From Mesodorylaimus sp. YZB2_4 (taxonomy: Eukaryota > Nematoda > Enoplea > Dorylaimida > Dorylaimidae), in the NCBI GenBank assembly GCA_030248295.1, contig JASANH010001399.1, positions 1-64,000 on the forward strand: a stretch of 64,000 nucleotides of DNA, written 5' to 3'. The notes under the pieces were generated by a model. The model saw only the letters and a list, made by a program, of their open reading frames with translations. It ran no database searches and was not told the DNA's origin. Below are positions 1,742-52,700 of this stretch, piece after piece. Numbering within the stretch: position 1 is the stretch's first letter; each line of letters opens with the position of its first letter. The position numbers were made by a program, and so were the translations under genes.

Positions 1742-2637
1742 ATTTTGACTGGTTATTTGAAAATGATGCTTCGGATAAGAGCGACTGGCTGCAAGTGCCA
1801 CGAGGTCTCGTGGACTTTGGTGCGCTGAGGAGAAGTCTGAAGCTCCTCTTCTCCCATTTGGCTTTATTCTGCAGCTGATCAGTTGAAGCCTTGCTCGACC
1901 GAATCGCGTATCACGTGGGCTACTTTTTATAACAAAAGCAGAACAAAGAAGACAAGCCCCTGGCGCGTGCTCAACGGATCAAGGTCTTTATTTGAGAGGT
2001 AGCAGGACAGAACATGGCCTATGCAAGCAGACGTGAAATACTCGTTCGGATCAAGCTGCCCAAGGTAAACCGTCAAGAACTAACCAAAGCCCAGCATCTG
2101 CTGCCTTTCTGTCTGAACGGGGGAATTTTTCTTTTAATACGAATCTTTTTTCCACTTTTCCGTTTCCGCTGTAAGGCTTCAACCAGGAGCCCACCGTATC
2201 ACAGAATACAGTATTCCCGTTTGCCCTTGCACATTTGTTGTCGCTTCATTGAGCCGCTTTTTCGCTGTTTCACCGAGCTTAAATCCAGTTCACCCATGCG
2301 CAAGTTTCGTTTTCGCTTTGCCAACTTGAGAACTTTCTTTTAAAATCGAACAGCGCGCTTTTGCGACAGAGGAAAACTTTGTGAAGTGAGTGTGTCCCTT
2401 ATAAGGCACGCTCGTTCAAGGTGATCGCTGTCGAACCCTCTCTCCAGGTGGCATTCACAATGATCGAGCGTCGAGGTACGTGTGTATCGAGCGTCATGGC
2501 AACGAGAATGCGCTTGGTCGCTACCGGGCTGCAGAGAGCCATAGTTCCGCACTCCAAGACATACGACTTCCTCGCCAACTTTCCGAACGGAAACCATTTT
2601 ACAATCGGACATAAAAAGGGACAGTGGGACTCGAGTC
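1742..2637. other. Intergenic region upstream of the crescerin gene
   Basis: About 900 nt without recognisable coding sequence. It should contain the promoter and 5' UTR of the downstream TOG-domain gene, but I see no clear TATA box or other site. Confidence 0.5.
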
Positions 2638-5600
2638 ATGGCTTTATCAGCTAAATTATGGCCATTTTCTTCTATTGAGAAAAGCGAGAAACCCACTTTG
2701 CCCAAAACTATGTCTCTCAAGTCCAGTTTGTTTGCTTCATCAGCTGCCGATGAAGAAATTTTGGAACAATTGAATACACCAGATTTCGAACTTCGATTGC
2801 GTACTTTAAATCGATTACGTAATTTAGCTTTGGGACATGAGCTGTGGTTTAAAAAATTTAGTAAAAAATTAGAATTATTTAAATCATTTTCAAATGTTTT
2901 ATCGGATACAAATTGGGAAGTACAACATCAATGTATCAAATTCTTGTCGGATACTATGCGCGATTACGGGCCCGATTTGGAATGGTGTATGGCTATTGTT
3001 ATGCCAAATTTGGTACCGAAATTGGGCAGTTCTAAAATTACAGTTCGTCGAATCTGTCTTCAATGTTTTATCGCCTATATTAAACAAGTGGATGGCGCGC
3101 ACACTTTTCAAAAAGCTTTGATACAATATGGATTACAAAAAGGGGATAAATCTTTGACGAAAGAAATCTTAAAAGAGATACCAAACTTGTTCATAAGCGA
3201 GTTCAATATGTACAATTGGTCTGTACTCACCGAGGGCCTCGCTGAATATTTATGCTCCCCATCTGTCGATCGCGAGACTAATGATCTGATTTTGGCCGTT
3301 TTGGAACGATTATTACATTTGGTTGGCCAATATCAGTTCAATAACTACGTGCATAACTTACCTGCGAATCAGAGAAGTCGATACGAGGAGCTGTTATTGC
3401 AAAGGGGTGCCACCTCTGCGCCATTTGGAAGGGGCAATCAAGGCAGGACGAGTTTGGCAGGGGTGAGTAAGTTCGAGGCATTGCCACCCATGGATGACGG
3501 AGTGGAGGAGTATGGGAAAAGTGGTGGTGCGGGAGAAGTCGCGGTTACTGCTGGCAAGCAATTCCGATACGGTGTGATACCCGTTTCTTTGGTTGATCAG
3601 CTGAATAACGAAGCTGATTGGCAAATACGATATGATGGTTTGGAGAAATTGAAAGAATTCATAGAAAATATGAACGAAACTGATATGAAGAAATTGCAGC
3701 CTCATTTATTCAGCTATATTAATTTATTGAGCAATGTTTTAGATGACCTAAATATCAAAAATATTGTTTTGGCACTGGATGTACTTCGAGCTTCGGTTAC
3801 CAAAATGCGCCGTCACATAGAACCACATTTGCAACACGTCGTGGCAGCTATGGGCAAACATTTGGGCAATCAAAAAGCTGTGGTCAAACAGTTGAATATG
3901 TCAATTATTTTAGAACTAATGCGTCAGTTGCACCCGAAACCAGTGTTCGCAGCATTGTGTGGGTTTCTGCAGCACAGAAATTCGAGAGTGCGCGAAGAAG
4001 TACTCAATATTGTGACTATTGCTTTGCTGACACATGCCAGTACTGATTTCAATATATCTGCCGTCGCCCACGTGGTCAGTCCCTTATTGGCCGATGGCAA
4101 GCGGCGCGTGAGATTGGCCGCTTTCGAATGCTTAGCCGTATTGGCCAATTGCGTGGGAGTTGGAAAGATTGAGAGTGTCATGAAGCATGTGAGAGAAGTA
4201 GAAGAGACCAAAAACGCACCAGGTATGTTCTAGCTAGCGTGGGGTGGGATTAGTGACAGAATAGGAATATAATGGGGGGGGGGAGGGTAGGAAACACTAG
4301 GCCGCATTTCGAAGATTTAACGTTTTCCGCCAAAGATAGTAAGCTGAAGTGCACTTGGTACAAAGTTGCGGCCCTTTCCCGCAGGGAGTATTGTGTTCGG
4401 CAAACTTGAAGTCTGGAATTATCGGGATTCAGGATTCTACAGCGATCAGACAGAGGTTACGGGAGCCATGCGCAGGTACACTACATAGTGTGTGCTTGTG
4501 TGGGCGGGGGAGAGTCAAATGCGTAGAATCTTACTGCTCGAATGCTTATGCGCTTAGCCGCTTGTCGGAAAGGTCACCAGGGCGAGTTACCTCGCATCCC
4601 TTTTTCTCGTTCATTTCAGCTGCTCATGTTTTGTCGCCTCCCCACTGTTTTGATCTTTGACGATAAGTCTCATTTTCTCACCTGCACAGTGGTCAAGTCA
4701 CGTCCGCTTGGCGTGCGGCTTTTCTTTGTGGTCTGGCCCTTTCGTACCTTGCTCTAATCCAGCAGAGCTGTTAGCACAATTTTTACCTTTTCACCCGACA
4801 AAGGGCTTGTTGACTTTGCTCCATCTCGTAACAGGCTACCCTTTGCACTAGCATTATCGCAGCTGCCAGGTAGTCGCGTAGGGAGGGCTTGTTTGCGCAG
4901 GCGGCCAGTTAATTATGTTCGGGTATGTCTGATCGATTACTATCCAGATTGCTTTTTTCCTGTCTCGCCGATTGCAAGGAGCTAATGACCGAGGATATGC
5001 TTACCTGGTAGCCAAGTAAATATCAGGACTGAAAAAAACAAAGTTACTGCTGTCGTTATGGGGCAGTAATGTTGTCACGGGAACGTTGCAAAGTCAAGGC
5101 TCATTGATCGCTAATTCCGAAAAAGAAAAAAAAGGTGTTATTGGAGCAGACTAGGCGCAAGCTTATAAATGTCGAGAGGGAGGGGCTCTTTCTAACATAA
5201 AATGCAAAGTTAGGTGTTCGGTTAATGAGGAGAGAGGTGAAGATGATAAGAATCACAACAAGTAGTGTATTGTCCTGTCTACCTATTCGTCCACTTTTAG
5301 GCCTAACACACGCTGTGCAGGCTCGCTTGACTCGAAATCAATTGCCCAAGATCCGGTACGATGGACTGCTTGAATACGCCGCCCTGCCGCTCAGTCCGAA
5401 CAGTGAAGAACCACGAAGGCACTCATCGGAATCGTCGACTAGCATACAGTCGGCCGACATCGAATGGATCATGAGTGCAAGTGTTGGACAAGGATCGGCC
5501 GTGTCGCGATCCCTTTCACCAATCAGATACAGAGCTACGACGGCCGTCGAGAAGCAAACTCTCGCGGGCTCTTCCCCGTCTCAATTAGTTCAAACTAGGC

Positions 5601-32581: not shown

Positions 32582-35500
32582 CTACCACTCTTCGCTGTTC
32601 TTTACGTATCCTTCTTTCAATTTCCTAAAGCGTTCCAACAGCTCTGCTATTCCGAGTTCACCGTGAACCTAAAAATAGATGTCGAGGTACTAGCATTTGT
32701 TATCCTGATCTAAGGCTACTTCAAAACCGCCACCTGATATTTCATTCAAGAATCAGAAGACATTTTTCCTCCTCCCGTCACTCCCCTACTCCCTCTCGTT
32801 CCTTTCCACTTTTTCTACTCGTCCCCACATATCCGGCTGCCAGAAATTTGGCTCTTCTCAGGAAGAAGGCAATAGGACCAAGTAGCTCTCTCTTATGTAC
32901 TTTTTTCACACTCTCTCTCGCCCTACATGGTCGTCAGAAATTTGGAAGCAATTTGGCTGTCCCCAGGAAAGGAGGCGAGGACCATATGGCTCCCATTAGC
33001 TTTCCCCATTGGCGCTGCATTTGTCTTATCTCCCAAAACCACTCACCTTATTATCCCTTGTGCGCACGTTGACCGTCTCGTTAGTCTTCTCCTTTTCACC
33101 AACGACCAATATGAAATTGTACTGAGCCAACTGCGCCAACCGAACTTTCTTGTTGAATGTATCGCTGTGATCCACATCCACGTCGCATTCGTACCCAGCT
33201 TCGTAAATCTGCCACAAAAGACTTTTTCCCACCAACAGGCGCAACGACTTAATCACGGTTTTACCTGATCACGAACTTTGATAGCATAATCGTCCAATGC
33301 CGGATGAACAGGCACGACCATCACTTGCCGAGGCGATAACCAGAACGGCCACTTGCCACCATAGTTCTCAGTCAATATGGCGATCATCCTTTCCACTGAT
33401 CCCAGAACAGCCCGATGTATCATGACTGGTCGTTGCTTCTCGTTATTGGCGCTTAAACGAGATACTTTCTTTCTGAAATAACCAGTACCTCAGAATCAGC
33501 CATCCACTTACTCGGTATAATTCAAATCAAATCTTTGCGGCAGTTGAAAATCCAACTGAATAGTAGCGCACTGATGAGGCCGACGTAAGGCGTCCGTGAT
33601 TACGATATCGATTTTCGGTCCATAAAAAGCGCCATCGCCCGGATTGATCTTGTAGTCCTGACCGGTCTCCGCTTTTAAGTGCTCCAATGCTTCCTTCAAC
33701 TGTTCTTCAGCGTGGTTCCTATAAACGAGACCACACCATTAGTCGAATCGCATTCTGAACCACGACAAAGTTTCGCTTACCAATCAGCCAGCTCCCCCAT
33801 GTAATCGTCTGGACGAGTAGAAAGATACAATTGGAATTGAAATCCGAACACTTCCTCGTATACGCGACGCAAGAATTGCAAAGCGCCAATCATTTCTTGA
33901 CCGATTTGGTCAGTACGGCAAAAAATGTGGGCATCGTCTTGCTGAAAACGTCGTACTCGAGTCAAGCCCGATAAAGCTCCCGCCAGTTCGTTCCTATAAA
34001 GTGCAAATATATGCAATGTATTAGCATATATAACCTTAATAAACCTACCTGTGCAAAACACCAAAATCGGCGTAACGCAGCGGCAAGTCTTTGAAAGTAC
34101 GCGGGCGCGAATCGAACATGAGACAATGGCCAGGGCAGTTCATTGGTTTCAGAGCGAATGTTTCTTTCTCGACATCGATCCTAAAAGGAAAGAAACCTCC
34201 ATTTAGGAAAGAATGCGAATCTAAAAACTTCGACTCACTTAAACATGTTCTTCGAATAATGCTGCCAATGACCCGACTGTTCCCACAAACGGGTATTGTA
34301 CATATTGGGCGATATGACTTCGACAAATCCACGTTTTCGATATTCTTTTCGCATAAAATCAATCAGCGTATTGTAAATATAAGCCCCTTTTGGGAAAAAG
34401 AAGGCCGAGCCTGGACTCAATTCGTGAAATACGAATAGCTCTTGATCTCGACCCAGCTTCCTATGATCCCTAGCCGCTGCTTCTTCCTAAAATACGAACT
34501 AGCCATGAGAGGGCTGCGAGAGCGAGAAGAAAAGCACCAACCTGAAACTTCTGCCATTCCTTCAACTGCTTCGGATCTGGAAAGCTAATACCGTAGATGC
34601 GTTGTAATGATTCAGCATCGGTCTTTCCTTCCCAGAATGCGCTGCCGACCTTGGTGATTTGATATGCCTTAATCTTGCCAGTATGACGAACATGAGGACC
34701 TCGGCATAAATCGATCAATGGACCGCATCGATAGACGGTGGTGGTCGGCGTATCAACCTTCTCGTTCAAGATTCGCACTTTAAATTCGTTATACCTGAAA
34801 GGTGCGATATTTTGTAGTCTAATCATGTAAAGGTTTTGGAGGAACTTACTTAAACATGTCCAACAGCTCAGCTTTTGTCAACTCTAATCGTTCGAACGGT
34901 TGTTTATCCTTGATTGCGCATTTCATAATTTCGTCCAGCCGTGGGAAATCTTCTCCACTTCGAACAGTGTTACGATCACCGCAACCGCAAGTGTCCAAGA
35001 ACATATCGTAGTAGAAACCGTCTTGGATTGGAGGTCCATAGCAAAGCAAACCACCGTAGAAACGTTCCATCGCTTCACCAAGCACGTGGGCGGTCGAGTG
35101 CCAGAATACCTGGAGAAGAAAAAGTACATTGCGTGCACAGAGGAGGGACGATAATAAGTGCACCTGGAAAAGTAATAAGCCTCCGAAATCCGAGTTCGCT
35201 ACCCAAGCAAGCAATAAAGGATCATCCCTGCATGCTGGGAAGAATGTGTCCTTTCCTTTTGTCCCTTAACCAAGCTTCTCACCCTGACTCACTGCCTCAT
35301 ACAGCTGTACAGAACTCTTACCTGCTTGGCGTCATCGTCGTCAAACTTCAACAATTGCAATCGGCAATTACGTTCTAATGGACGATCTAAATCCCAAACT
35401 TCGCCATCTACTTTAGAGATGACCACTTCTTCGGCCAAACCCTTGCTGATCTTTTGAGCAATATCGAAAGGAGTGGTGCGCCAAGACTGTCCGTCCATGA

Positions 35501-37647: not shown

Positions 37648-37653
37648 TTTATT
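37648..37653 (-). promoter_or_regulatory. Polyadenylation signal (AATAAA on the minus strand)
   Basis: AATAAA on the minus strand starts a few bases after the TAG stop of the multi-Tudor gene (37658-37656). This supports my choice of its last exon. Confidence 0.5.
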
Positions 37654-37655
37654 TC

Positions 37656-40600
37656 CTATTTTCCTTGTCCCCTAAAAAACCCTGTGTCAATGCACAATTT
37701 TTCAGCAAAGGCAAGCAACTGACCTCCTTGAGCAGCCATTTTATCTTCGTCCTCGGGATCCGCCAACTCGTCTTCGATCTCTTCATCCACACCTGAAACA
37801 GTAAAATTTACTGCAGAGCGCATCCGAGCACGCTCGTTTCGAACTCACCCGTAGCTTTGAGCAGTGCCTGACGCGCGTCCGCTCCGTTCACCTTTAATTC
37901 GATCCCATACCCCGCGTCTTCCACTGACATCACCGTTCCAGTCACCGATTTTCCTTTCGCCTCACCCGCAAACTTCTTGATCAATCGCCCGTACTCCGAC
38001 CAGCTGGCCTCAGCACCGTACAACTTGCATTTTATCGCCTGCCTGGGCCACTTCTTGAACGAGTCTGGAATCGCAAATATTTCGCATGCGTCCACGGAAC
38101 ACAGTTGCAGACCGTAGTCGACCAGCATCACGTCGCAAACTCGGCCGCTTTCGCCAACGGCCTTCACCAAACCACGACAATATATCGGAGCGTCGCTCGA
38201 TTCTTCCACTTTCGATTGAACGATGCAAGACTGACCAACTCGCGCCTCGCCCACCGCACTGAATGAGCCTCCTTCCAGATTCGCATAATCGGCCAGCAGA
38301 GCGGGAATCGTATCCAAGCCCGAAGCCTCAGCCACATTAATCCAAATTTCGTCGAAACTGACCACGTTAGTAATGCGACCGGCCACCGCCTCACCCACTT
38401 TGTACTCGATGGCAGCTGCCAATCGGCTCTTTCCATCATCGACCAACGGAAACTCATCGGGGTTCTGAGTCTGGCTGCCTTTTAGATTCAAGACGGAAGC
38501 TACGTCACCAGTGCTGGTTAGCAAGTCGACCATGTAGCGCCCGCCCTCAACATCGAACCGCTTAAACATCATTTTCAGCTCCTCGTTCGTCTCGACTATT
38601 TCTTGAAATTTCTCCGTCGCCTCCGACGCCTTTGTCGTGTCGACGACTCCATCTAATGCGGCCGCGATGGCAAGCGGGTGCAGTTCCGCCAGTTTCAGGG
38701 GCAGCTTCTTGATTTCTTGAATCTTCTTCGTCTCCGTGTTTCCGTAGTCCACAAATAGCACCTCCACTTCACCTTCCATCACGCGTACCACTTTGGCGCG
38801 GTACGGCTGGTCCTCGAACATGGCGCAGCAGACGTCGCCCTCCTTCGGGCTCTCGATCCCATCAGACCCATCGAATGCGCTTTGCAGATCTTTCCCGATG
38901 GCCTCCAATTTTCCCGAATCGGCCTTCGTCATGACGAAAAACGAGGGCAGCTGATCCACGTATGTAAATTGAACGCTGACTTCGCCTGAGTACTCGGGAG
39001 CGGATGCGTAGGACGTAGCGTGCGTTTCTTCCTTCTTCTCCGGGACGGTTCCTAAAAAACCATTTCCATGCTTTGCGAACGAGTATAGAAGCTGTTTCAG
39101 TGCTTACCGCCCTCCTGATCCTCCGCTTTGGCACCTTCGCTCGCCTCCGCCTTCAAACCCAATGCGACCGCCACACTGCTTCCGTCGACACTCGAGATCA
39201 AATCCATCACGTATAGGCCCTGTTGGTCGTCGAATCGCTGGATCACTCCTTTCAGGCCCTCGTCAGCTTCCACCATTTCCTGGAATTTATCCGTCGCTTC
39301 AGACGCCTTTTCAACGTCCATCACACAGCCAAGCGTCGCAGAAATGGCCAGCGGGTACAGCTCAGCCATCTTCTGCGGCAGTTTCTTGATTTCACCAAAC
39401 TTTTTTGTTTCTGTGTTTCCGTAGTCGACAAACAAAACTTCGACCTCGGACGATTCCGCTCTAACGGCCACCACTTTGGCGCGATAAGGCTGATCCTCGA
39501 ACATGGCGCAGCAGATGTCGCCCTCCTTCGGATCGTCTATGGTTTCAGAATTGTCGAAAGCTACTTGTAGCTCGCCAGCCATGGTAAACAGTTTTTCCGA
39601 ATCAGACTTGGTCATGACGAAAAAAGCGGGCAGTTGCTCGACGTAAGTGAACTGCACTTCCAGCACTTCAGAAAATTTCGGAGCGGATGGATAAGATGTG
39701 GCGTAGCTTTCGGTCGTTTCTGAAAGGGACAGCGGACGTTGAACATGAAACAGGCCTACAGTAAGTTTGAATATGCGCTTACCTTGCTCCGATGACTCGT
39801 CGCCTTCTTCTTTCAATCCCAGGGCCACAGCCACGTCGCCAATCGTGTTGGCGGTCAGATGGACAATATATTTCTTGCTTTGGTCGTCGAAACCTTTGAT
39901 TTTCATTTTTAATCCTTCAGCCGTCTCCATGAGATCCTGGAATTTCTCCGTCGCCTCTGCCGCCTTCTCTGAGTCTGGCACAGAGTGGAATGTGGACGCC
40001 AAGGCGGCCGGGGCCATCGCGGCGTATTTCTTTGGCAGCTTTTTGATTTCCGCACATTTCTTACTCTCTGTATTTCCGTAGTCGACAAAAAACACGTCGG
40101 CCTCGTTGTCTTTGACTTGTACGACCTGAGCTCGGTACGGCTGATCTTCGAACATGGCGCAACATACGTCGCCAGCTTTTGGGTTCGCCAGTGATTCCAG
40201 CTGGTCAAAGTCGCTCCTCAGACCTTCCGAGAGAACGCTCAGAGGTTCGGCGTCGGTCTTCTTCATCACGAAAAACGATGGCAGTTTGTCGACGTAGGCG
40301 AATTCCACCTCTAATAAGCCAGAGGCCTTAGCAGCGGCAGGATATGAACTGGCATATTCATCTTCTTTGGTCACTGTCGAAGCTAAAACAAAAACGAAGC
40401 TATTTTTAAAAATATTGGTCACACAAAGACTACAACAGTAGACACCTCAGAAGAACATTCGTCATAATGAAGAAAAAATCCTACTTGTATCCCAAGCCTC
40501 AGTGGATGCTTTCGGCTCATCGAATGACGATTGTGGAGCTGCTGCGGGGAATGAATCAAAACCAGATTTGTCTTCGCCACCAAAGCCTCCGCTCGAGGTT

Positions 40601-43600
40601 TGATCCCCTCCGAAACCTCCGCCGCCACTAAACCCTCCGCCAAAGCCCCCGCTTCCTCCGAATCCTCCGCGATCTGAACGTCCTCCGCCGCGACCACCGC
40701 GATCGCCGAAGCGGCCGCCGCCACGGTCTCCGAAACGATCACCGCGACTGCCACCTCCTCGGCCACCAAATCCGCCACGATCGCCGCCCCGCCCTCCGCG
40801 CTCTCCTCCCCCAAAACCACCACCTCTTCCGCCGCCAAAGCCGCCCTGCTGATCACGGTCGCCACTGAAACGGCCCCCGCCGCCACGCTCTCCACTGAAC
40901 CGTCCACCGAATCCGCCGCCTTCGCCGTCTCCACGGGGCTGCCTTTCGCCAAATCCTAGAGCACTTTTATCATCATTACGGGCAAAAAACCTGCAATCGA
41001 ACGAGCCACTTACCGCCGCGTCCTCCTCTTCCGCCTCGACCGCCTTGGTGGTCGTCGTTGCGTCGGCCATACCCGCGATTATCGTCCTCGCTGCGCCGAG
41101 CTCCAAATCCACCGTCGTCGCGGCGTCCACCACGATTTTCTCCAAACCCGTTTTGGCTAACTTCGCTTTGAATTGGAGCAGCCGCCACTGCAGCAGCTAG
41201 CGCCGGCGGCGGCGGGCCTTTTCCGAGCAGAAACGCGTTAATGTCGTAGTCCGACTGATTATTCACCACTTTGTAAAGAATGACGCGAATACTCGACCCT
41301 TCTTGATCCACTAAAAAAGTACAACTTATTCAGCACTGCAAGTTCATTTGCCATCTGAACCTACCTAAACGAATAACCATCTCCTGCGCCTCAGCAGCAG
41401 CTCGAAACTTGTCGATTAAAGTCGTATCAATACCGAACTCGACATCAGTCAGTTTGCACTCGACTGCTTGAGCGGGCAACCTCACGCACTCCGAAGGAAG
41501 CATCTTCACGTCCCCTTTCGACATTTTCTCCGTATTTCCATAATCCACGAAAAACACCTGCAAGCTACCATTGCAACACGAGCAATGGCGGCCAACTCGA
41601 AGCACCTACCTCCAACTGAGTGGGGGACAGACGCTCCAGAATCAATGCGCGATACCAGCGCTGATCGACACTGTATTTTGCGGCGCAAATTTGACCTAAA
41701 AAGCAAAGGCACTCGAAATTTTATTTATAAAACTACGTTCAACTTTCCAGGACTTACCTCGACATGGATTCACCAAAGAAGTCACGTTTCCTCCAGAATA
41801 TAGCGTGTTGAGTTCTTGACTCAGTTTTTCGATATCAGCTTCGTTCTGTTTGAGCTGTACGAAAAATTTGCCCGAAACTGTAACATAGATTCTGTTGAAG
41901 CGAGCGAGCCCCCATAAAAATACGCCTTACCGTCCACATAGCTCACAATGACGTCGACAAAATCGTCAGTCTTGGCAGGCACCACCAGCGGACTGAATCC
42001 ACTCACCACCACCTTCGTCTGGCCCGGCGCGGTTAGAGGCGCTGAAAAAGAAAAACGGTTAGATTCCGGACAAAGAGGCTTTTTTCTGCTACTAACCTAG
42101 ACTAGCATTATAGAAGATGAAACTTCTGGACGCAGTGTTCCGCGCCAGTTCTGTTCTTCGAAAATCCGACATTCGATTCATTTTCTCAACCTGTGACCGA
42201 CTTAAAAAAAGAGAAAAATACGGAAATTATAATTTGGATCGCCTCTACCCGCGATCCGCGCCAACACGCCCCGTCGCGAGAAGTTCATCTTCGCTCACTC
42301 ATCCCCCCACTCAACAACTCGAGGAGCCGCTTTCCGGGCAGGGACGAACCCGAACTCGAATTACGCCTCCTCTCTAAGCTACCCTAACAAACCTGCAGCC
42401 GCCCGGACTGCCCTCTCGGCGCCACGCTCCTCATTTCGGGCAGGAACGGACACGCTGGCCCCTGCTCGTTGCTGTGGATTCACGGCTGCACCTCCAGCGC
42501 CCGGCTCTCGCTCCAGCGTCGACCGAAGATGATCGCGCACAATCACGTTGATGTTAACTCGGTCCATCGTGAACAGCTCGACCAAGTGAACGTCATCGAC
42601 AATATTGTGAACGAGTGCGATGAAAGGCTGACTGGACTCTTCCAAGACGTTGCGGAATATTTCGATCTGTTCCAACGACCAGACTCCTTGCTCAGGGACG
42701 CCGACCAGGGCGCACTTGATGGCCATCACCTCGTACTGCATGCACTGCGGGTGCATCGGGAGAATGCTGTTCTTCGGGATGATGGCATCATTCCCATAGT
42801 CGACATAGCGCACCTTGACCGTCGGCGCGTGTACTTCCAAGATGACGGCCCGATACCACGCGTCCTCGAACGGGGCCACGCACGGCGTGTCTTTTCGAAT
42901 GACTGCGAGCGGACCTATTCCAGGCGTGGCGGCGTAGTGCTGCAGCGTTTCTTGCAACTCGATTAATTCGGTGTCCCAGCTGAGCAGATTGACGAAAAAT
43001 TCTTCGAGATCCGTGATGTGAGATACGATGCAGGGTTCTTTCGAGCGCCTTTTTAACAGGCGCTGCTTGAAAGCCATCGACGGTTGAGGCATCAGTGGTT
43101 GAGGTTTGACGGGTACTGGGTGACTTTGTTGCACAGTCGTCCCAGCCACTGGAGCAAACAGAGACTGCTTATTGGGTATCGGAGTGATCGTAGACAGCGA
43201 TTGTTGATGCTGCGGCGGAGGCAAACCTGGCGGTGGTGCAACTGCATTGATGCGACCAACAACAGCCGACGGCAACTGAGTGCCCGTTGAAACGGAAGAA
43301 AACCGCGGAAGAGCAAAACCCAAGCTGATTAATCGTTCCGACAGTTTCGTGTGACCGCCGTCGGTAAAGACTTGGACGACCATTTTGGTCGGCTGATGAC
43401 CGACTATTTCGACCTCAATTTCTTCGTAGCAGAGCGTTGATTGGATATGCGTAACGGCGTCAAGAGTCCATTGGTCGCCGATCGCCACAATGCCATCGAG
43501 CAGACATTCTTTAGCCAGCGATTCACGATCGAACAAAGGAATGATGGACGAATCGAAGATGCTGTTTATGTCCACATCCGCATCGTTTCCGAAATCCATG

Positions 43601-44804
43601 TAGTGCACCTGCGGGTAACGAAATCTGGTTTGAAAATGTGGGAAAGAATGTTACTCGAACTTACCGTTACAGTGTTGTTGTCGTTGAACTTGGTAATCAC
43701 CGATCGATACAGCTTGCGTTGACTGGTACCGTCGTCGTACAAAGCCACGACTTTTGATCCTAGGGCGAGGAAAAAACATAGATAAATGGGCGAAGAAAAC
43801 AATTAACGCAAGATACTCACCAATGTCTAAATTAGCACGATTCAGAGTCAGTGGAATAGCTGCCGTTGATTTCTCCAATGAGGCCAGCCGCATTTCCATC
43901 TCTTTTCCAGCACCAAGATCGAACTGAGCCCATATCTGAAACCAAAAAAAGATTACATACTCTCACTCACTCACTCAAGTAGCAGGTACAATAAGGGGTG
44001 AGGAATTTTCGTTTAAAGAGGAGTGACATGACGGTTTTTATGGACCTATACGCGTAACAACTGTTTCTAGTGGTGGGATGACTTACATCACAGTGTCTAG
44101 AATCCCTGGGTAGGCTTGGATTGGAGGCATATATTTGTGCTCACGGCATTGCCTGATCCGAAATGGAGACACCAGCTCGATCAAACGATATGTCTATCTT
44201 CAAAACGCAAGTAGGCTACATGCGTATCTGAGCGAGGCACCCACTAGTTCAAATCCCCACCTGGCATGACAGTAATATGAAAGTTGGCCAAGCGTGTGCG
44301 TGGATGAATGGAAAATAATACAAGGGAAGACACTGCGTTGCTTTGCTGCCATTGTGCTAGGATAAAAATTTGTTGCGATTTGATGGGTACAGTATCGAAA
44401 TCGCGAGATAGACCGACCGATACATAAAACGCGACCGCAAACACAGAAAATTGATTCACACGCGCTAAGAGTCGGATTGGTTCTATCTACTTCAAAAATT
44501 TCAGGTCCGCCTGGAACTGAAATACGCGAGATGAGCTAGGTGGTTAGGGGAATCCGCTGTGAATGCTGAATCACACGTGAATGATGAATTATAGAACTAT
44601 ACATAAAACGGAAAAAACAAAAAACAGTGCTATTACGAAGGACTTGAACCCCGAGCTTACTTTCAGATCTCTGGATTGAAAATCAACATGCGTGACGTAA
44701 GCGCGACAACGTTGCCTACCAGGAATTGGCCCCGCCATCGTCTGAGGTTGCCGACCGACGTACGCTGCCGATGTCGCACTTGAAACTTCGAATGCACGTT
44801 GCAT
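37656..44804 (-). CDS. Seven-Tudor-domain protein with internal RGG/FGG block
   Basis: Fourteen exons in transcript order, phases all matching: 44804-44661, 43935-43821, 43759-43665, 43608-42393, 42041-41931, 41877-41758, 41695-41610, 41557-41365, 41310-41014, 40955-40485, 40382-39783, 39719-39108, 39051-37849 and 37792-37656; about 1,799 residues. Tudor 1 (about 33-190, HYMDFGND) is interrupted by three introns. Tudor 2 (about 320-500, WYRAVIL..RYVDYGND) and Tudor 3 (about 525-700, FFVDYGNTE) follow. Residues about 740-935 are RGG/GGF/DRGG-rich. Tudors 4-6 are three similar about 200-residue modules (CCAMFEDQPYRA, FVDYGNTE), and Tudor 7 (about 1560-1750) has VDYGL in place of DYGN. Extended Tudors with aromatic cages bind symmetric dimethyl-arginine in Piwi and Vasa-type proteins of germ granules. 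The first exon is the least certain. I cannot assign a named ortholog. Confidence 0.88.
40485..41310 (-). other. RGG/FGG-rich low-complexity segment of the Tudor protein
   Basis: Two exons (41310-41014 and 40955-40485) encode about 200 residues dominated by G, R, D, F and S with many RGG, GGF and DRGG motifs. Such segments bind RNA, phase-separate and are substrates of arginine methyltransferases. Here the segment sits between Tudor 3 and Tudor 4 of the same chain. Confidence 0.85.
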
Positions 44805-47572: not shown

Positions 47573-49183
47573 ATGAGCTATTCTGGTTTATTGCTGTTGG
47601 CGGCTATCTCCTGTCTCCTCGTCCTCTCTACTGCTAAACCAACTGGATACGGAGTCGAATATGCATTCGTATTGGCTGTAAGTTCGAGATTTCGGGTATC
47701 AGATCAGACCTGAACGAAGTAGAGGATGAGTAGCGATGTGTTGTATTGAGCAGCAAGCCATAACTTCTTAAAGCCTGTCTTCCCTAATCGTACAAGTTAG
47801 TCCTGAACTTTAACGGGTGTAGGCCAGTTGAGCCGTTCCTGATTGCGCCCTTTCTAGTAGCGCTGACCTATTTGCGCTGTTTTGGTTTGCGCCATGTCCT
47901 AATTTCGCCGACCCCGAATTGCGTTTCTTTCTGTTGCGCCGCTCTTTGATTGAGCCGGGTCATAGAGTGGTATAGCAGTTTGTGGTAGTCGCCTGTGTTT
48001 ACTCGCACATCATCTAACCTTGTAATAATCCTGATGAAAGTAAAGCTTTCGGCCGTTTATAATCAGGTCTCTACTATAGACGCGACGCTAAAAAAGCTGC
48101 GTTTCTGCAATGAAATTTTTGATAGGTTCTTGAGCAAGCCATCAAAATTTGAGCTCATCATTCGTGATCAGTGCTCATACAGTATGAGCACTGATCACGA
48201 ATCGTTGCGGCCCAGAGCCAGCATTGACCGATCCGAGGGGTTAATCGGTTCCCGATCCGATCCGACCGCTGGGTCGGCCGGATCGGCAACTGAAATTTTA
48301 CGCTCTGTATCTGCCGAAGAATGATAAGGTGTGGCATACTATAATGAGAAAATCCCGGTTTTTCTCTCAAAATAGCACTCAGTCCCACTTTAGGCTCTGC
48401 TGCTTTCTCCTCCCTGCGTCCTTTAGAGTGGACTGACAGAGTGACAGCGAAAAAACAGAGCAGGTTGGTGAGGACGCAGTGCCAAGTACTGTACGTCCTC
48501 CCCGTCAATCTAAATTCTTTTGGAGCGGATTGGCCGAATCGGATCGGCATATAGACCTAGGGTTGGATCGGTCGATGCCGGGCACAGAGAGGTTTCAATC
48601 CAACCTGAGAAATCAGCGCAATTAGTGACAAGCGCAACTCAAAGCGGTGCAATTATGTATTGGCGCAACACAAACCGGCGCAATCAGGAAACGGCGCAAG
48701 TGAAACGGCGCAATCCGAACGGCGCAACTCATAAGCGGCGCAACTGGGTATTTCTTACTTTAACGTTAGGTCTGCTTTGTTTATTGCATACTTTAGCTGC
48801 TGTGTCGATAGGAGACAGTCATGTGGAGAAATAATCTGTACTGTGCCGCAGTGAGCTACCCACCAGTTCGTGAGGCGCAATCCATGCTGGCCCAGTTCCC
48901 TCGCGAGACTGCCAATACTTGGTCTGAGCCGGTGACGGACACGAAACTGCCTCTGCTGGCTGTATTAGGACCCCGGTCTCCTGATCATGCATCACTTTAG
49001 TGCGAGCTATCTTTGATTCCTTTACAGGACGAACGCCCAATGAAGCCGAATTATCCATGGCAAGCAGTCGAAACGGATGAGTTTTCTGAGCTATCGCCTA
49101 ATGTGGCCAGTCCGGCTGACTTCCCCGATCAAGGTGGACTAGTGTTCATGAAACGCGCTTTGCCACCTTTTCGATTGGTCTGA
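47573..49183 (+). CDS. Small secreted peptide precursor, family unknown
   Basis: Two exons, 47573-47677 and 49028-49183, joined in phase 0, encode 86 residues. Residues 1-21 form a clear signal peptide (MSYSGLLLLAAISCLLVLSTA). The rest is an acidic spacer rich in Pro, Asp and Glu that ends in a dibasic site and a short tail (FMKRALPPFRLV) followed by TGA. Cleavage at KR would release ALPPFRLV as a non-amidated octapeptide, or the tail may be trimmed further. The layout (signal peptide, acidic spacer, KR, C-terminal peptide) matches a neuropeptide or peptide-hormone precursor, much like the allatotropin-like gene at 1279. I do not recognise the family. No cysteines remain after the signal peptide. 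The 1,350-nt intron holds the foldback element described separately. Confidence 0.6.
47833..48752. mobile_element. Foldback-type repeat element with long, tandem-repeat inverted ends
   Basis: The left end (about 47833-47962) has about nine degenerate 14-18-nt units built on TTGCGCC. The right end (about 48610-48752) has about nine units built on GGCGCAA, the reverse complement. The outermost units pair well: left GTTGAGCCGTTCCTGATTGCGCC against right GGCGCAATC/GGCGCAACT units. The interior holds a perfect palindrome at 48160-48202 and GATCCGATCCGACC / GGTCGGCCGGATCGG blocks. There is no transposase coding sequence, so it would be non-autonomous. It resides wholly inside the intron of the peptide gene at 47573. 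Exact ends and target-site duplication could not be fixed. Confidence 0.65.
48160..48202. repeat. Perfect 21-bp palindrome
   Basis: Left arm 48160-48180 and right arm 48182-48202 are exact reverse complements with a single A at the centre. It lies in the interior of the foldback-type element. Confidence 0.9.
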
Positions 49184-49794: not shown

Positions 49795-52700
49795 CTAATC
49801 GGTCACCTGCTGGTCTCCTGCTGGCAGAGCAGAAGCTACTGCTTGCTGTTGCTGTTGCGCGATGAGCATGACTTTTCTCCTGTCTTCGATCCATTCACTA
49901 ACTTTTAGATGATCTTCCAATCGAAAGATGCTTTTTGGATCTCGGGTTACCAAGAGCAAGGCGTCTTGTTGATGCCCTTTCACTGAGACGGCAGCGAGTT
50001 GAACGCCGGAAGCACGAAGATTCTCAGAGGCTTCTTCCACGTGATCTTCACTAACACCATCCGACACAAAGATGATGACGTTAAGCCTATTTGGTTGGTC
50101 AACTTGGGACTTGGCCTGTTGTCGTGGTGATAATCTTAGCACACCCTGCGATAGGCCTTGTTGCGGCTGACGCGGAGAGATGCCACCAGCCATGGTGGAA
50201 GCAGGTGGAGGGCGAGATGGTTTCTTGGAAGGCGACAGAGTGGGTGTCTTGAAAATCTCTGCAGCAAAACGTAATGCGCGCCCAGAGTAGGTCCCACCGC
50301 CCATATAGGTCAGACGATCTAGAGCTCCTGAAGACAAGGAAGCCAATCGTACCAAAAATTTCGCTTGATTAGACAAGAGTGTGCTCACCTAGCACATAGG
50401 CAGTAGATAAGTACTTGTCAAAGCCGAACATAAGAAGCGGTTCTTGATTGAACATGACACAACTTATTCTCGATCCTTCGCCCATTACATCGATCCGTCC
50501 AGCTATGAATTTCAAGAATGTCTTGACACGATCGAAGTTGCCATTGCCGATGCTTCCACTGTTGTCGACCAGAAACAGAAGATCCACGAATGGCAAAGGA
50601 GGCAAAGCGGGTGGCATTTTTTTGACTGAAATAAGTACCTTTGTGCACTAGGTCAATGCAATTCAGGTCAGGTATGCCTACTCACCAGGTATCTGCGTCT
50701 TCTTGCGCCCAAACTGACCAGTGACTGCAATGGGGTCACTGAAAGCACGACTACCACGTTTTCCGCCGTCTTCTCCCGCTCCTTCTAGACTCTGGCTGGT
50801 CGCATTGCCATATTGCTTTCGTTTAAATGTTCCAGTCAGATTCGAATCGGACTTTCTTGAGGCGAGGTCAGATAAGGAGTTACGTCGATTTTGGGGTTCA
50901 ATCTCGTCGCTTCGCTTGCGTCTAAATTGGCCGTGAACACCACTCCGTTTCTGCTCTCCGTCTTGTCTCTCAGTCCCTTTTGCGGTTGCTGGGTCTACAA
51001 AGATTGTCCCTGCCGCTGTTGCATCAGCGCCATCCACCGCGGCGTTTTGATCAGATTCTTCCTTACCGCCTGCATTTTCACCCAATTTTTGCCCAGATTG
51101 ACCGACTTCGTTTAAATACACTCCTTCGCCACCCTGTTGTTGTCTAGGCTTTTCTATGTCTGATCCATCATTCCTTTCATAAGTGGCCGTGGCGCCTCTC
51201 AATTGATCACGTTGTAAGCTAGGACCCGCGACGGCGTTTCGACCCCGAGCATATAGGGCATTGCGAGGAGGCACCCAGTAGGTCCCGTTAGGGAGTCCGT
51301 TGTCAGGCCACTGTTCACCAGCAATGCCTATGGATGCTGAAAAGTCTAAAATTACTCCTCTGTCCCGACAGATTACTCGACAAGTCCACCTCTTACTCTG
51401 AGCCTGATCCGCTCCGGCGACGTAATTTGGGTCTTCACTCGGGGACCCTTTCCTCTGATCGCCTAATAACCGTTGCCGATCATTGTGCACTCGGTAGTAA
51501 TCCACGTTCTCCGCCCCGTTCCTGTGCGTGAGACGGACATTGCTAAGCGAGGTCGAGCCACCAGCCGTGTTGCCGCGTACGACTTGTACCCCTTTGGCCA
51601 TGGTCGGCAGCTTGTTGCTGGCTTGACCTTGTTCCACTTGAGTGCTCTTTGTTCTGAGTTCTTGGATTTTGATCAGTAGCTTTTTGTCTGGAACGGAAAA
51701 CAGTATAAAGTGGATCATGCATGCATAAGTTAAGTGAAACATACTTTCTTGCCGCTTTCGATACAGACAATAGGCCAGAATGAGAAAAGCGATCAAAGCA
51801 AGAATGATGAGCAATATCAATATGCCCAATGTGGTCCCCCCGCCAAAAGTGGCCGCAGCCACTGAGCTTTCGGTTGTAGAATTTCTGGAGTTGGAGTTGG
51901 CGTCATCATTCCCGCGAACGGCGCCACCATTATTCCCTCCACTGTTTCCGTTTCCGCCGTTGGTTCCACCTCCATTACCAGAATTGGAATTGCTGTTGCT
52001 GTTGCTGCCGCTGTTTCCATTGCCTCCATTGCCTCCATTGCCATTGCTGCCATTGCCGTTGGCTCCGTTGCCGCCAGTACCGCTACCGGTTCCACTGTTT
52101 CCGCCGGTACCACTGCTGGTCCCTGTTCCATTTGCTCCTCCACTATTGGTCCCACCTGAACCACTGCCACCATTGCCGTTACTTCCAGAATGGCTTCCAC
52201 CACTTGTACCAGACCCATTACCAGTTCCAGTCCCGCCATTGCTACCACTGTTGTTTCCACCGCCCGTGCTCCCGCTCCCATTGCCGCTCCCGCTATTTCC
52301 ATTGCCACCAGTGCCACTCCCACTATTGCCACCATTTCCGGTACCGCTTCCGCTATTGTTTCCTCCTTGGTCATTAGAACCGTTTCCGTTCGTGCCACCG
52401 TTACCACCAGACCCGGTCCCACTGCCATCCGCCACGCCAGTAACTAAAATGAGTAGAAGGTCATAAAAATGATATGTATATGCTACCAAGGGGTCTCTGT
52501 CGAGAACCCCGCTATAAATCCTTCTCTTCTGTCACCCGGCGTGACTAGCTCTCAGATAATGACCTTAGTAGCGGGAAGGCTCAATGCAAAAATATACAGA
52601 TTGTAAAGTTGTCATATTTCGCCCAATGTGGCCGTATTTCAAAAACTGTGTGAACATAGGACGAGAACACAGGTCTTTTAACAAAAGACTTAAACTTGTT

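What the first reader, a model, noticed from the sequence alone, without database searches (positions are those of the whole stretch)
37656..44804. Tudor protein carrying its own RGG ligand-like segment
Tudor cages of germ-granule proteins read methylated RG-rich tails of other proteins (Piwi, Vasa). Here about 200 residues of RGG/FGG repeats lie between Tudor 3 and Tudor 4 of the same chain. Reader and potential substrate in one polypeptide would allow self-association or condensate scaffolding. I do not know a named animal Tudor protein with this exact order.
Basis: partly seen in the sequence, partly recalled or inferred. Interest (0 to 1): 0.72.

Follow-up and report, generated by a model that had tools for sequence, protein, structure and literature searches.

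The report
Nematode Tudor scaffold with own RGG
A roundworm gene encodes a protein with seven Tudor domains, most of which look able to read methylated arginines, and a conserved arginine-glycine tract of the kind such domains read, so it may help assemble granules by binding copies of itself.

Summary
The minus-strand gene (ATG 44804, stop ends 37649) joins in frame over 15 exons with GT-AG introns to 1784 residues: Tudor 1-3, a 226-residue RGG/FGG segment, Tudor 4-7. The first 68 residues of the segment share an exon with the end of Tudor 3.

The genome is a nematode's (133 cuticle-collagen matches). A paralogue on contig C19 has the same 15 exons and phases. Between the two copies the RGG segment is the most constrained part: dN/dS 0.043 against 0.10-0.34 for the Tudors; 29 of 29 aligned arginines are identical.

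A third, diverged gene on C36 has the order Tudor 3-RGG-Tudor 7 without Tudor 1, 2, 4, 5 and 6. Its first exon resembles a nearly invariant block inside intron 4 of the long genes, which suggests an internal start giving a Tudor 3-RGG-Tudor 4-7 isoform.

Cages of Tudor 1-6 are intact, that of Tudor 7 is not. PRMT5 and an RG-tailed PIWI are present. Reading of its own RGG is plausible but untested. New variant of a multi-Tudor scaffold.

The parts
44661..44804 (-). exon 1, start codon at 44804, begins Tudor 1
   Evidence: open frame joins exon 2 in phase 0; same exon of 144 nt in the C19 copy
42393..43935 (-). exons 2-4 (introns included): rest of Tudor 1 and Tudor 2 (aa about 301-480)
   Evidence: Pfam TUDOR 29.5 bits for T1, 77.4 for T2
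42097..42181 (-). candidate internal first exon inside intron 4: 28 codons from ATG 42181 to a GTTAGT donor, phase 1, in frame with exon 5
   Evidence: 2 differences in a 103-nt block between C394 and C19, least changed 103-nt CDS stretch has 5; resembles first exon of the C36 gene, 2 of 20000 shuffles score as high
41365..42041 (-). exons 5-8 (introns included): most of Tudor 3
   Evidence: Pfam TUDOR 99.2 bits on the spliced segment
41014..41310 (-). exon 9: C-terminal end of Tudor 3 plus first 68 residues of the RGG segment
   Evidence: phases 1-1; RGG part 93% identical to C19
40485..40955 (-). exon 10: RGG/FGG core, 471 nt, symmetric 1-1 phases
   Evidence: dN/dS 0.018 for aa 793-930; RGG exon at the same place in C19 and C36
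39783..40382 (-). exon 11: Tudor 4
   Evidence: Pfam TUDOR 57.7 bits; cage F,Y,F,Y,N
39108..39719 (-). exon 12: Tudor 5
   Evidence: Pfam TUDOR 65.3 bits; best solved relative Drosophila maternal Tudor, E 7.6e-13
37849..39051 (-). exon 13: Tudor 6 and Tudor 7 (T7 cage broken)
   Evidence: 68.3 bits and 44.2 bits; cage reading
37649..37792 (-). exons 14-15 (intron included): acidic C-terminus and stop
   Evidence: same two small exons in C19

Best explanation
The gene encodes a germline-type Tudor scaffold of the Drosophila Tudor / TDRD1 kind, built on a conserved core Tudor 3-RGG-Tudor 7. PRMT5-type enzymes would methylate arginines of the RGG tract (and the RG tail of PIWI). The intact cages of Tudor 1-6 would bind methylated RG segments of PIWI and of neighbouring copies of the same protein, while the RGG/FGG tract also binds RNA and other RG/FG tracts. 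Together this gives a multivalent, self-complementary protein that concentrates PIWI and RNA in granules. An internal start in intron 4 would make a shorter form without Tudor 1-2. Shown here: gene structure, domain order, cage residues, purifying selection on the RGG, a family of three genes, presence of PRMT5 and of a PIWI with an RG stretch. Inferred: methylation, binding, self-association, germline expression, the internal start.
For: In-frame 15-exon model; paralogue with the same architecture; RGG most constrained: 19/482 nonsynonymous against about 352/3571 elsewhere, Fisher P 4.7e-6, while synonymous change is higher, 91/169 against 364/1073; 29/29 aligned R and 18/18 aligned F identical, one R and one F lying in gaps; cages T1-T6 intact in both copies, and the profile of T2 and T4-T6 aligns at these positions with SND1 and Drosophila Tudor; third gene with T3-RGG-T7; PRMT5_C at two loci; PIWI-clade Argonaute on C172 with an upstream frame bearing GRGRGRGR. 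Precedents read in passages: Drosophila Tudor as multi-Tudor condensate scaffold, citing DMA-Tudor modules (PMC12261137); Krimper, whose separate self-interaction region is needed to form granules in heterologous cells (PMC8249470).
Against: No binding, methylation, expression or localisation data. The RGG is phenylalanine-rich (19 F, 1 Y); in C. elegans an F-rich RGG motif was found in nucleolar proteins and a Y-rich one in P-granule proteins (PMC9633708, passages); neither motif was searched as such here (FRG 0, YRGG 0). The C36 gene keeps its RGG with an imperfect Tudor 3 cage, so an RGG is kept without many own cages. The tract has 14 gap columns in four runs between the two long copies, so its length is not fixed. 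RGG contexts (14) outnumber GRG (7). No structure could be predicted: the machine was busy at all six tries.
Confidence: 0.42

Rival explanations
1. The RGG tract is chiefly an RNA-binding and condensate-forming linker; the Tudor cages read only other proteins (PIWI, Sm and the like). Reader and RGG share a chain, but the RGG is not the cages' ligand.
For: An RGG is kept in the C36 gene, whose two Tudor domains have one imperfect cage and none; 14 RGG against 7 GRG; a PIWI with an RG stretch exists as a ligand in trans.
Against: All aligned arginines and phenylalanines are unchanged between the long copies, stricter than a loose linker needs; six cages are kept in the long copies.
Confidence: 0.33
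2. [quoted passage not shown] elegans pores, and its methylation is incidental.
For: 13 FG and 8 FGG in the tract; GLH-1 FG repeats drive association of P granules with pores (PMC12050070, passages); F-rich RGG motif in C. elegans nucleolar proteins (PMC9633708, passages).
Against: FGG is absent from the C36 tract (0 FGG, 4 FG), so it is not the family's common feature.
Confidence: 0.15
3. Two genes, Tudor 1-3-RGG and Tudor 4-7, misjoined by reading across a gene boundary.
For: No transcript was available; intron 10, between RGG and Tudor 4, is the third longest of the 14 (102 nt).
Against: The frame joins without a stop and in the same phase in both long copies, and in C36 an RGG exon is followed by a Tudor 7 exon, though that junction rests on a hand-picked donor.
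Confidence: 0.03

Closest known systems
Drosophila Tudor (maternal protein tudor) and TDRD1-type multi-Tudor scaffolds
   Same: Several extended Tudor domains with aromatic cages in one chain; best solved relatives by sequence (4q5y, 5m9n, 3nth among them).
   Different: Seven instead of eleven domains; a conserved RGG tract between domains; the word RGG does not occur in the main text of the Tudor paper searched (PMC12261137).
Krimper (Drosophila)
   Same: Extended Tudor domains plus a self-interacting region; proposed scaffold of nuage (PMC8249470, passages).
   Different: Krimper self-interacts through an N-terminal region, for which those passages mention no RGG tract.
Coilin
   Same: RG box and Tudor-like domain in one chain, condensate scaffold (PMC3539977, passages).
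   Different: One atypical Tudor-like domain; RG box bound by SMN in trans; Cajal bodies.
GLH-1 and related FGG-repeat germ-granule proteins of nematodes
   Same: FGG repeats.
   Different: Vasa-class helicases (PMC12050070, passages).

Membership tests
Multi-extended-Tudor scaffold proteins (Tudor/TDRD type) | Several Pfam TUDOR domains in one chain | tested here: met
   7 of 7 over cut-off
Multi-extended-Tudor scaffold proteins (Tudor/TDRD type) | SN-like extension around the Tudor core | tested here: inconclusive
   profile of T2 and T4-T6 aligns before and after the core with extended Tudor chains; structure prediction did not complete
Multi-extended-Tudor scaffold proteins (Tudor/TDRD type) | Aromatic cage for dimethylarginine | tested here: met
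   T1-T6 complete in both long copies by pattern, T7 not; cage positions recalled
Multi-extended-Tudor scaffold proteins (Tudor/TDRD type) | Binds sDMA ligands and builds germ granules | not testable with these tools
   needs protein and worms
RG/RGG-repeat proteins | Three or more RG, each within 15 residues of the next (rule of PMC9633708) | tested here: met
   runs of 6 and 10 RG in the window protein, 5 and 9 in C19, 14 in C36
RG/RGG-repeat proteins | Arginine methylation of the tract | not testable with these tools
   needs mass spectrometry

The most novel reading that the evidence does not exclude
A nematode Tudor family carries reader and ligand in one chain as an ancient, selected unit (Tudor-RGG-Tudor core in three genes). 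Long members grew by joining a Tudor 1-2 part upstream while keeping the core's own promoter inside intron 4, and by adding Tudor 4-6. Methylation of the tract would switch the protein between closed and cross-linked states, and the choice of start would set the number of cages per RGG.
Probability: 0.2. Interest if true: 0.8.

Novelty: new variant of a known kind. Interest (0 to 1): 0.55.

Why it matters
Multi-Tudor scaffolds are thought to build germ granules by reading methylated RG tails of other proteins. A chain that holds six intact readers and a strictly conserved RG tract gives a single-molecule system in which to test whether dimethylarginine-Tudor contacts are enough for condensation. 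It is also unexpected in a nematode: loss of canonical piRNA-type Tudor genes is reported for several nematodes and called a common pattern there (PMC12147562, passages).

Tried and rejected
Rfam search of 36.5-45.5 kb: no match. Intron 4 as a structured RNA: two stretches, z-scores -0.92 and 0.03, rejected. Intron 4 as a repeat: only the two long genes matched. Alleles of one gene: rejected because dS is about 0.5, introns 1 and 9 differ greatly in length and the downstream neighbours differ (opposite-strand open frames in C19; threonyl-tRNA synthetase in the window). Intron 4 as a cassette exon after exon 4: in the window the acceptors I tried by eye put a stop in the frame, so a first exon fits better; this was not exhaustive. 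SL1 in the genome: no match, but none of the 14 controls matched either, so it says nothing. A genome search with the RGG tract found only the two long genes, yet C36 has one, so that search misses diverged tracts and says nothing on rarity. The 43 Tudor matches lie on 26 contigs; I read the regions on 9 of them (window and L009-L016), and 3 of these 9 have a dense RG tract between Tudor domains (window, L009, L016). The taxon below Nematoda was not settled. Conservation in other species could not be tested: I found no other nematode genome among the collections on hand.

Literature: ten searches showed no paper that I recognised, from titles and abstract openings, as describing an RGG tract between Tudor domains. 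Two lists were cut (15 of 132, 15 of 30), and the library lacks most subscription papers. The Cell paper on DMA-Tudor modules is not held and is known to me only through its citation in PMC12261137.

Full report
What is there. Read on the minus strand, window 44804-37649 gives a 15-exon gene of 1784 codons with GT-AG introns throughout and phases that join (model made by hand). The order is Tudor 1 and 2 (exons 1-4), Tudor 3 (exons 5-9), RGG segment (end of exon 9, exon 10), Tudor 4, 5, 6 and 7 (exons 11-13) and an acidic tail. All seven Tudor domains pass Pfam's cut-off. The RGG segment, aa 725-950, has 17 RG, 14 RGG, 8 FGG, 30 R, 19 F and 1 Y; outside it the protein has 3 RG and no RGG.

Where it is from. 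The window is contig C394 of a 145-Mb assembly with 133 matches to the nematode cuticle collagen domain, so the animal is a nematode; the species is not known.

Second copy. C19 holds a paralogue with the same 15 exons and phases, 1777 residues. Over 1765 aligned codons identity is 82%. Per segment dN/dS is 0.17, 0.31, 0.11, 0.17, 0.30, 0.18, 0.34 for Tudor 1-7, 0.27-0.57 for two linkers and the C-terminus, and 0.043 for the RGG segment (0.018 for aa 793-930). Nonsynonymous change is lower in the RGG than elsewhere (P 4.7e-6) and synonymous change higher (P 1.2e-6, sites taken as independent). The higher synonymous rate may partly reflect glycine codons, so the ratio exaggerates, but the nonsynonymous rate alone is also the lowest. 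Of aligned residues, 29/29 R, 18/18 F and 78/79 G are identical, with one R, one F and six G in gaps; outside the RGG 45/56 R are identical. The tract does vary in length: 14 gap columns in four runs.

Third gene. C36 holds a gene of first exon, Tudor 3, RGG, Tudor 7 (both Tudors over the Pfam cut-off, 87.0 and 44.5 bits). Its exons 3-5 are 117, 86 and 193 nt, against 120, 86 and 193 nt for exons 6-8 of the window gene; its first six junctions have the phases of the window's (internal first exon and exons 5-10), but the RGG-to-Tudor 7 junction is phase 0 instead of 1 and rests on a donor picked by hand. The RGG exon starts with GFGER in both genes. Against the window gene, Tudor 3 is 44% identical over 118 query residues and Tudor 7 33%. 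A genome search with the C36 protein gives C36, C19 and C394 as the clear family, with weak Tudor-only matches on C47 and C157. The 3' end of the C36 model is not settled. In C36 the first cage position of Tudor 3 is H, and Tudor 7 lacks the cage (read).

Internal first exon. Intron 4 is 351 and 348 nt in the long copies and 84% identical over 346 aligned positions; 11 of the other 13 introns are 49-74%, but the short introns 12 and 14 reach 80% and 85%. A 103-nt block in it has 2 differences; the least changed CDS stretch of that length has 5 (the block was picked after looking). The block holds ATG 42181 and 28 codons that end at a donor in phase 1, in frame with exon 5. The peptide resembles the first exon of the C36 gene (shared FR..ELARN), with 2 of 20000 shuffled pairs scoring as high (also picked after looking). 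I read it as an internal first exon. CSR-1 of C. elegans is a parallel: two isoforms that differ by one N-terminal exon with RG motifs, with regulatory elements for the short form in the following intron (PMC8270938, passages).

Working parts. Cage residues (F/Y, Y, F/Y, Y/F, N) are complete in Tudor 1-6 of both long copies by pattern; the profile of T2 and T4-T6 aligns at these positions with SND1 and Drosophila Tudor. That these positions form the cage is recalled from the literature on SND1 and Tudor. PRMT5_C matches lie on C107 and C6. Of 17 Argonaute C-termini read by eye, one, on C172, looks PIWI-type; its exon is closest to Piwi-like 1 and Piwi-A among solved proteins, and an upstream frame begins MSEHGDGGGASGAAGRGRGRGRPR (the link between that frame and the rest is inferred).

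Mechanism. Most likely a self-complementary scaffold: methylated RG tracts of itself and of PIWI bound by its own six cages, with RNA binding by the tract. The rival that the RGG is only an RNA-binding linker is nearly as likely, because C36 keeps its RGG with hardly any cage. Nothing here measures binding, methylation or expression.

Known or new. It is a multi-Tudor scaffold by sequence. RG plus Tudor in one chain is known from coilin (PMC3539977, passages). An RGG tract as a conserved part between Tudor domains is not described in anything that my ten searches showed me, hence new variant of a known kind. The C. elegans RG/RGG survey has the word Tudor once in its main text, in the reference list (PMC9633708); its list of 43 proteins is in a supplement that I did not see.

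Noticed in passing
window 42042-42392, minus strand: Intron 4 is conserved along its whole length between the two long copies and holds a probable internal first exon (ATG 42181, last exon base 42097).
   Followed up: yes
L016 (C36:204288-206518, minus): Diverged short family member with Tudor 3-RGG-Tudor 7; its 3' end is not settled.
   Followed up: partly
G000 C172 about 114.0-118.3 kb (L052, L048): PIWI-clade Argonaute with a GRGRGRGR stretch in an upstream frame, in a genome with 126 Piwi-domain exon matches; 16 of 17 C-termini read by eye look AGO/WAGO-type.
   Followed up: partly
window about 33800-35300, minus strand: Threonyl-tRNA synthetase-like gene downstream (tRNA_SAD and class II core domains).
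   Followed up: no
window 48616-48745: Imperfect tandem repeat of 31-bp units containing GCGCAA.
   Followed up: no
window 50678-52531, minus strand: Long open frame rich in G, N and S followed by a hydrophobic stretch, no Pfam match.
   Followed up: no
window 2545-4230, plus strand: TOG/HEAT-repeat protein (XMAP215/CLASP type).
   Followed up: no
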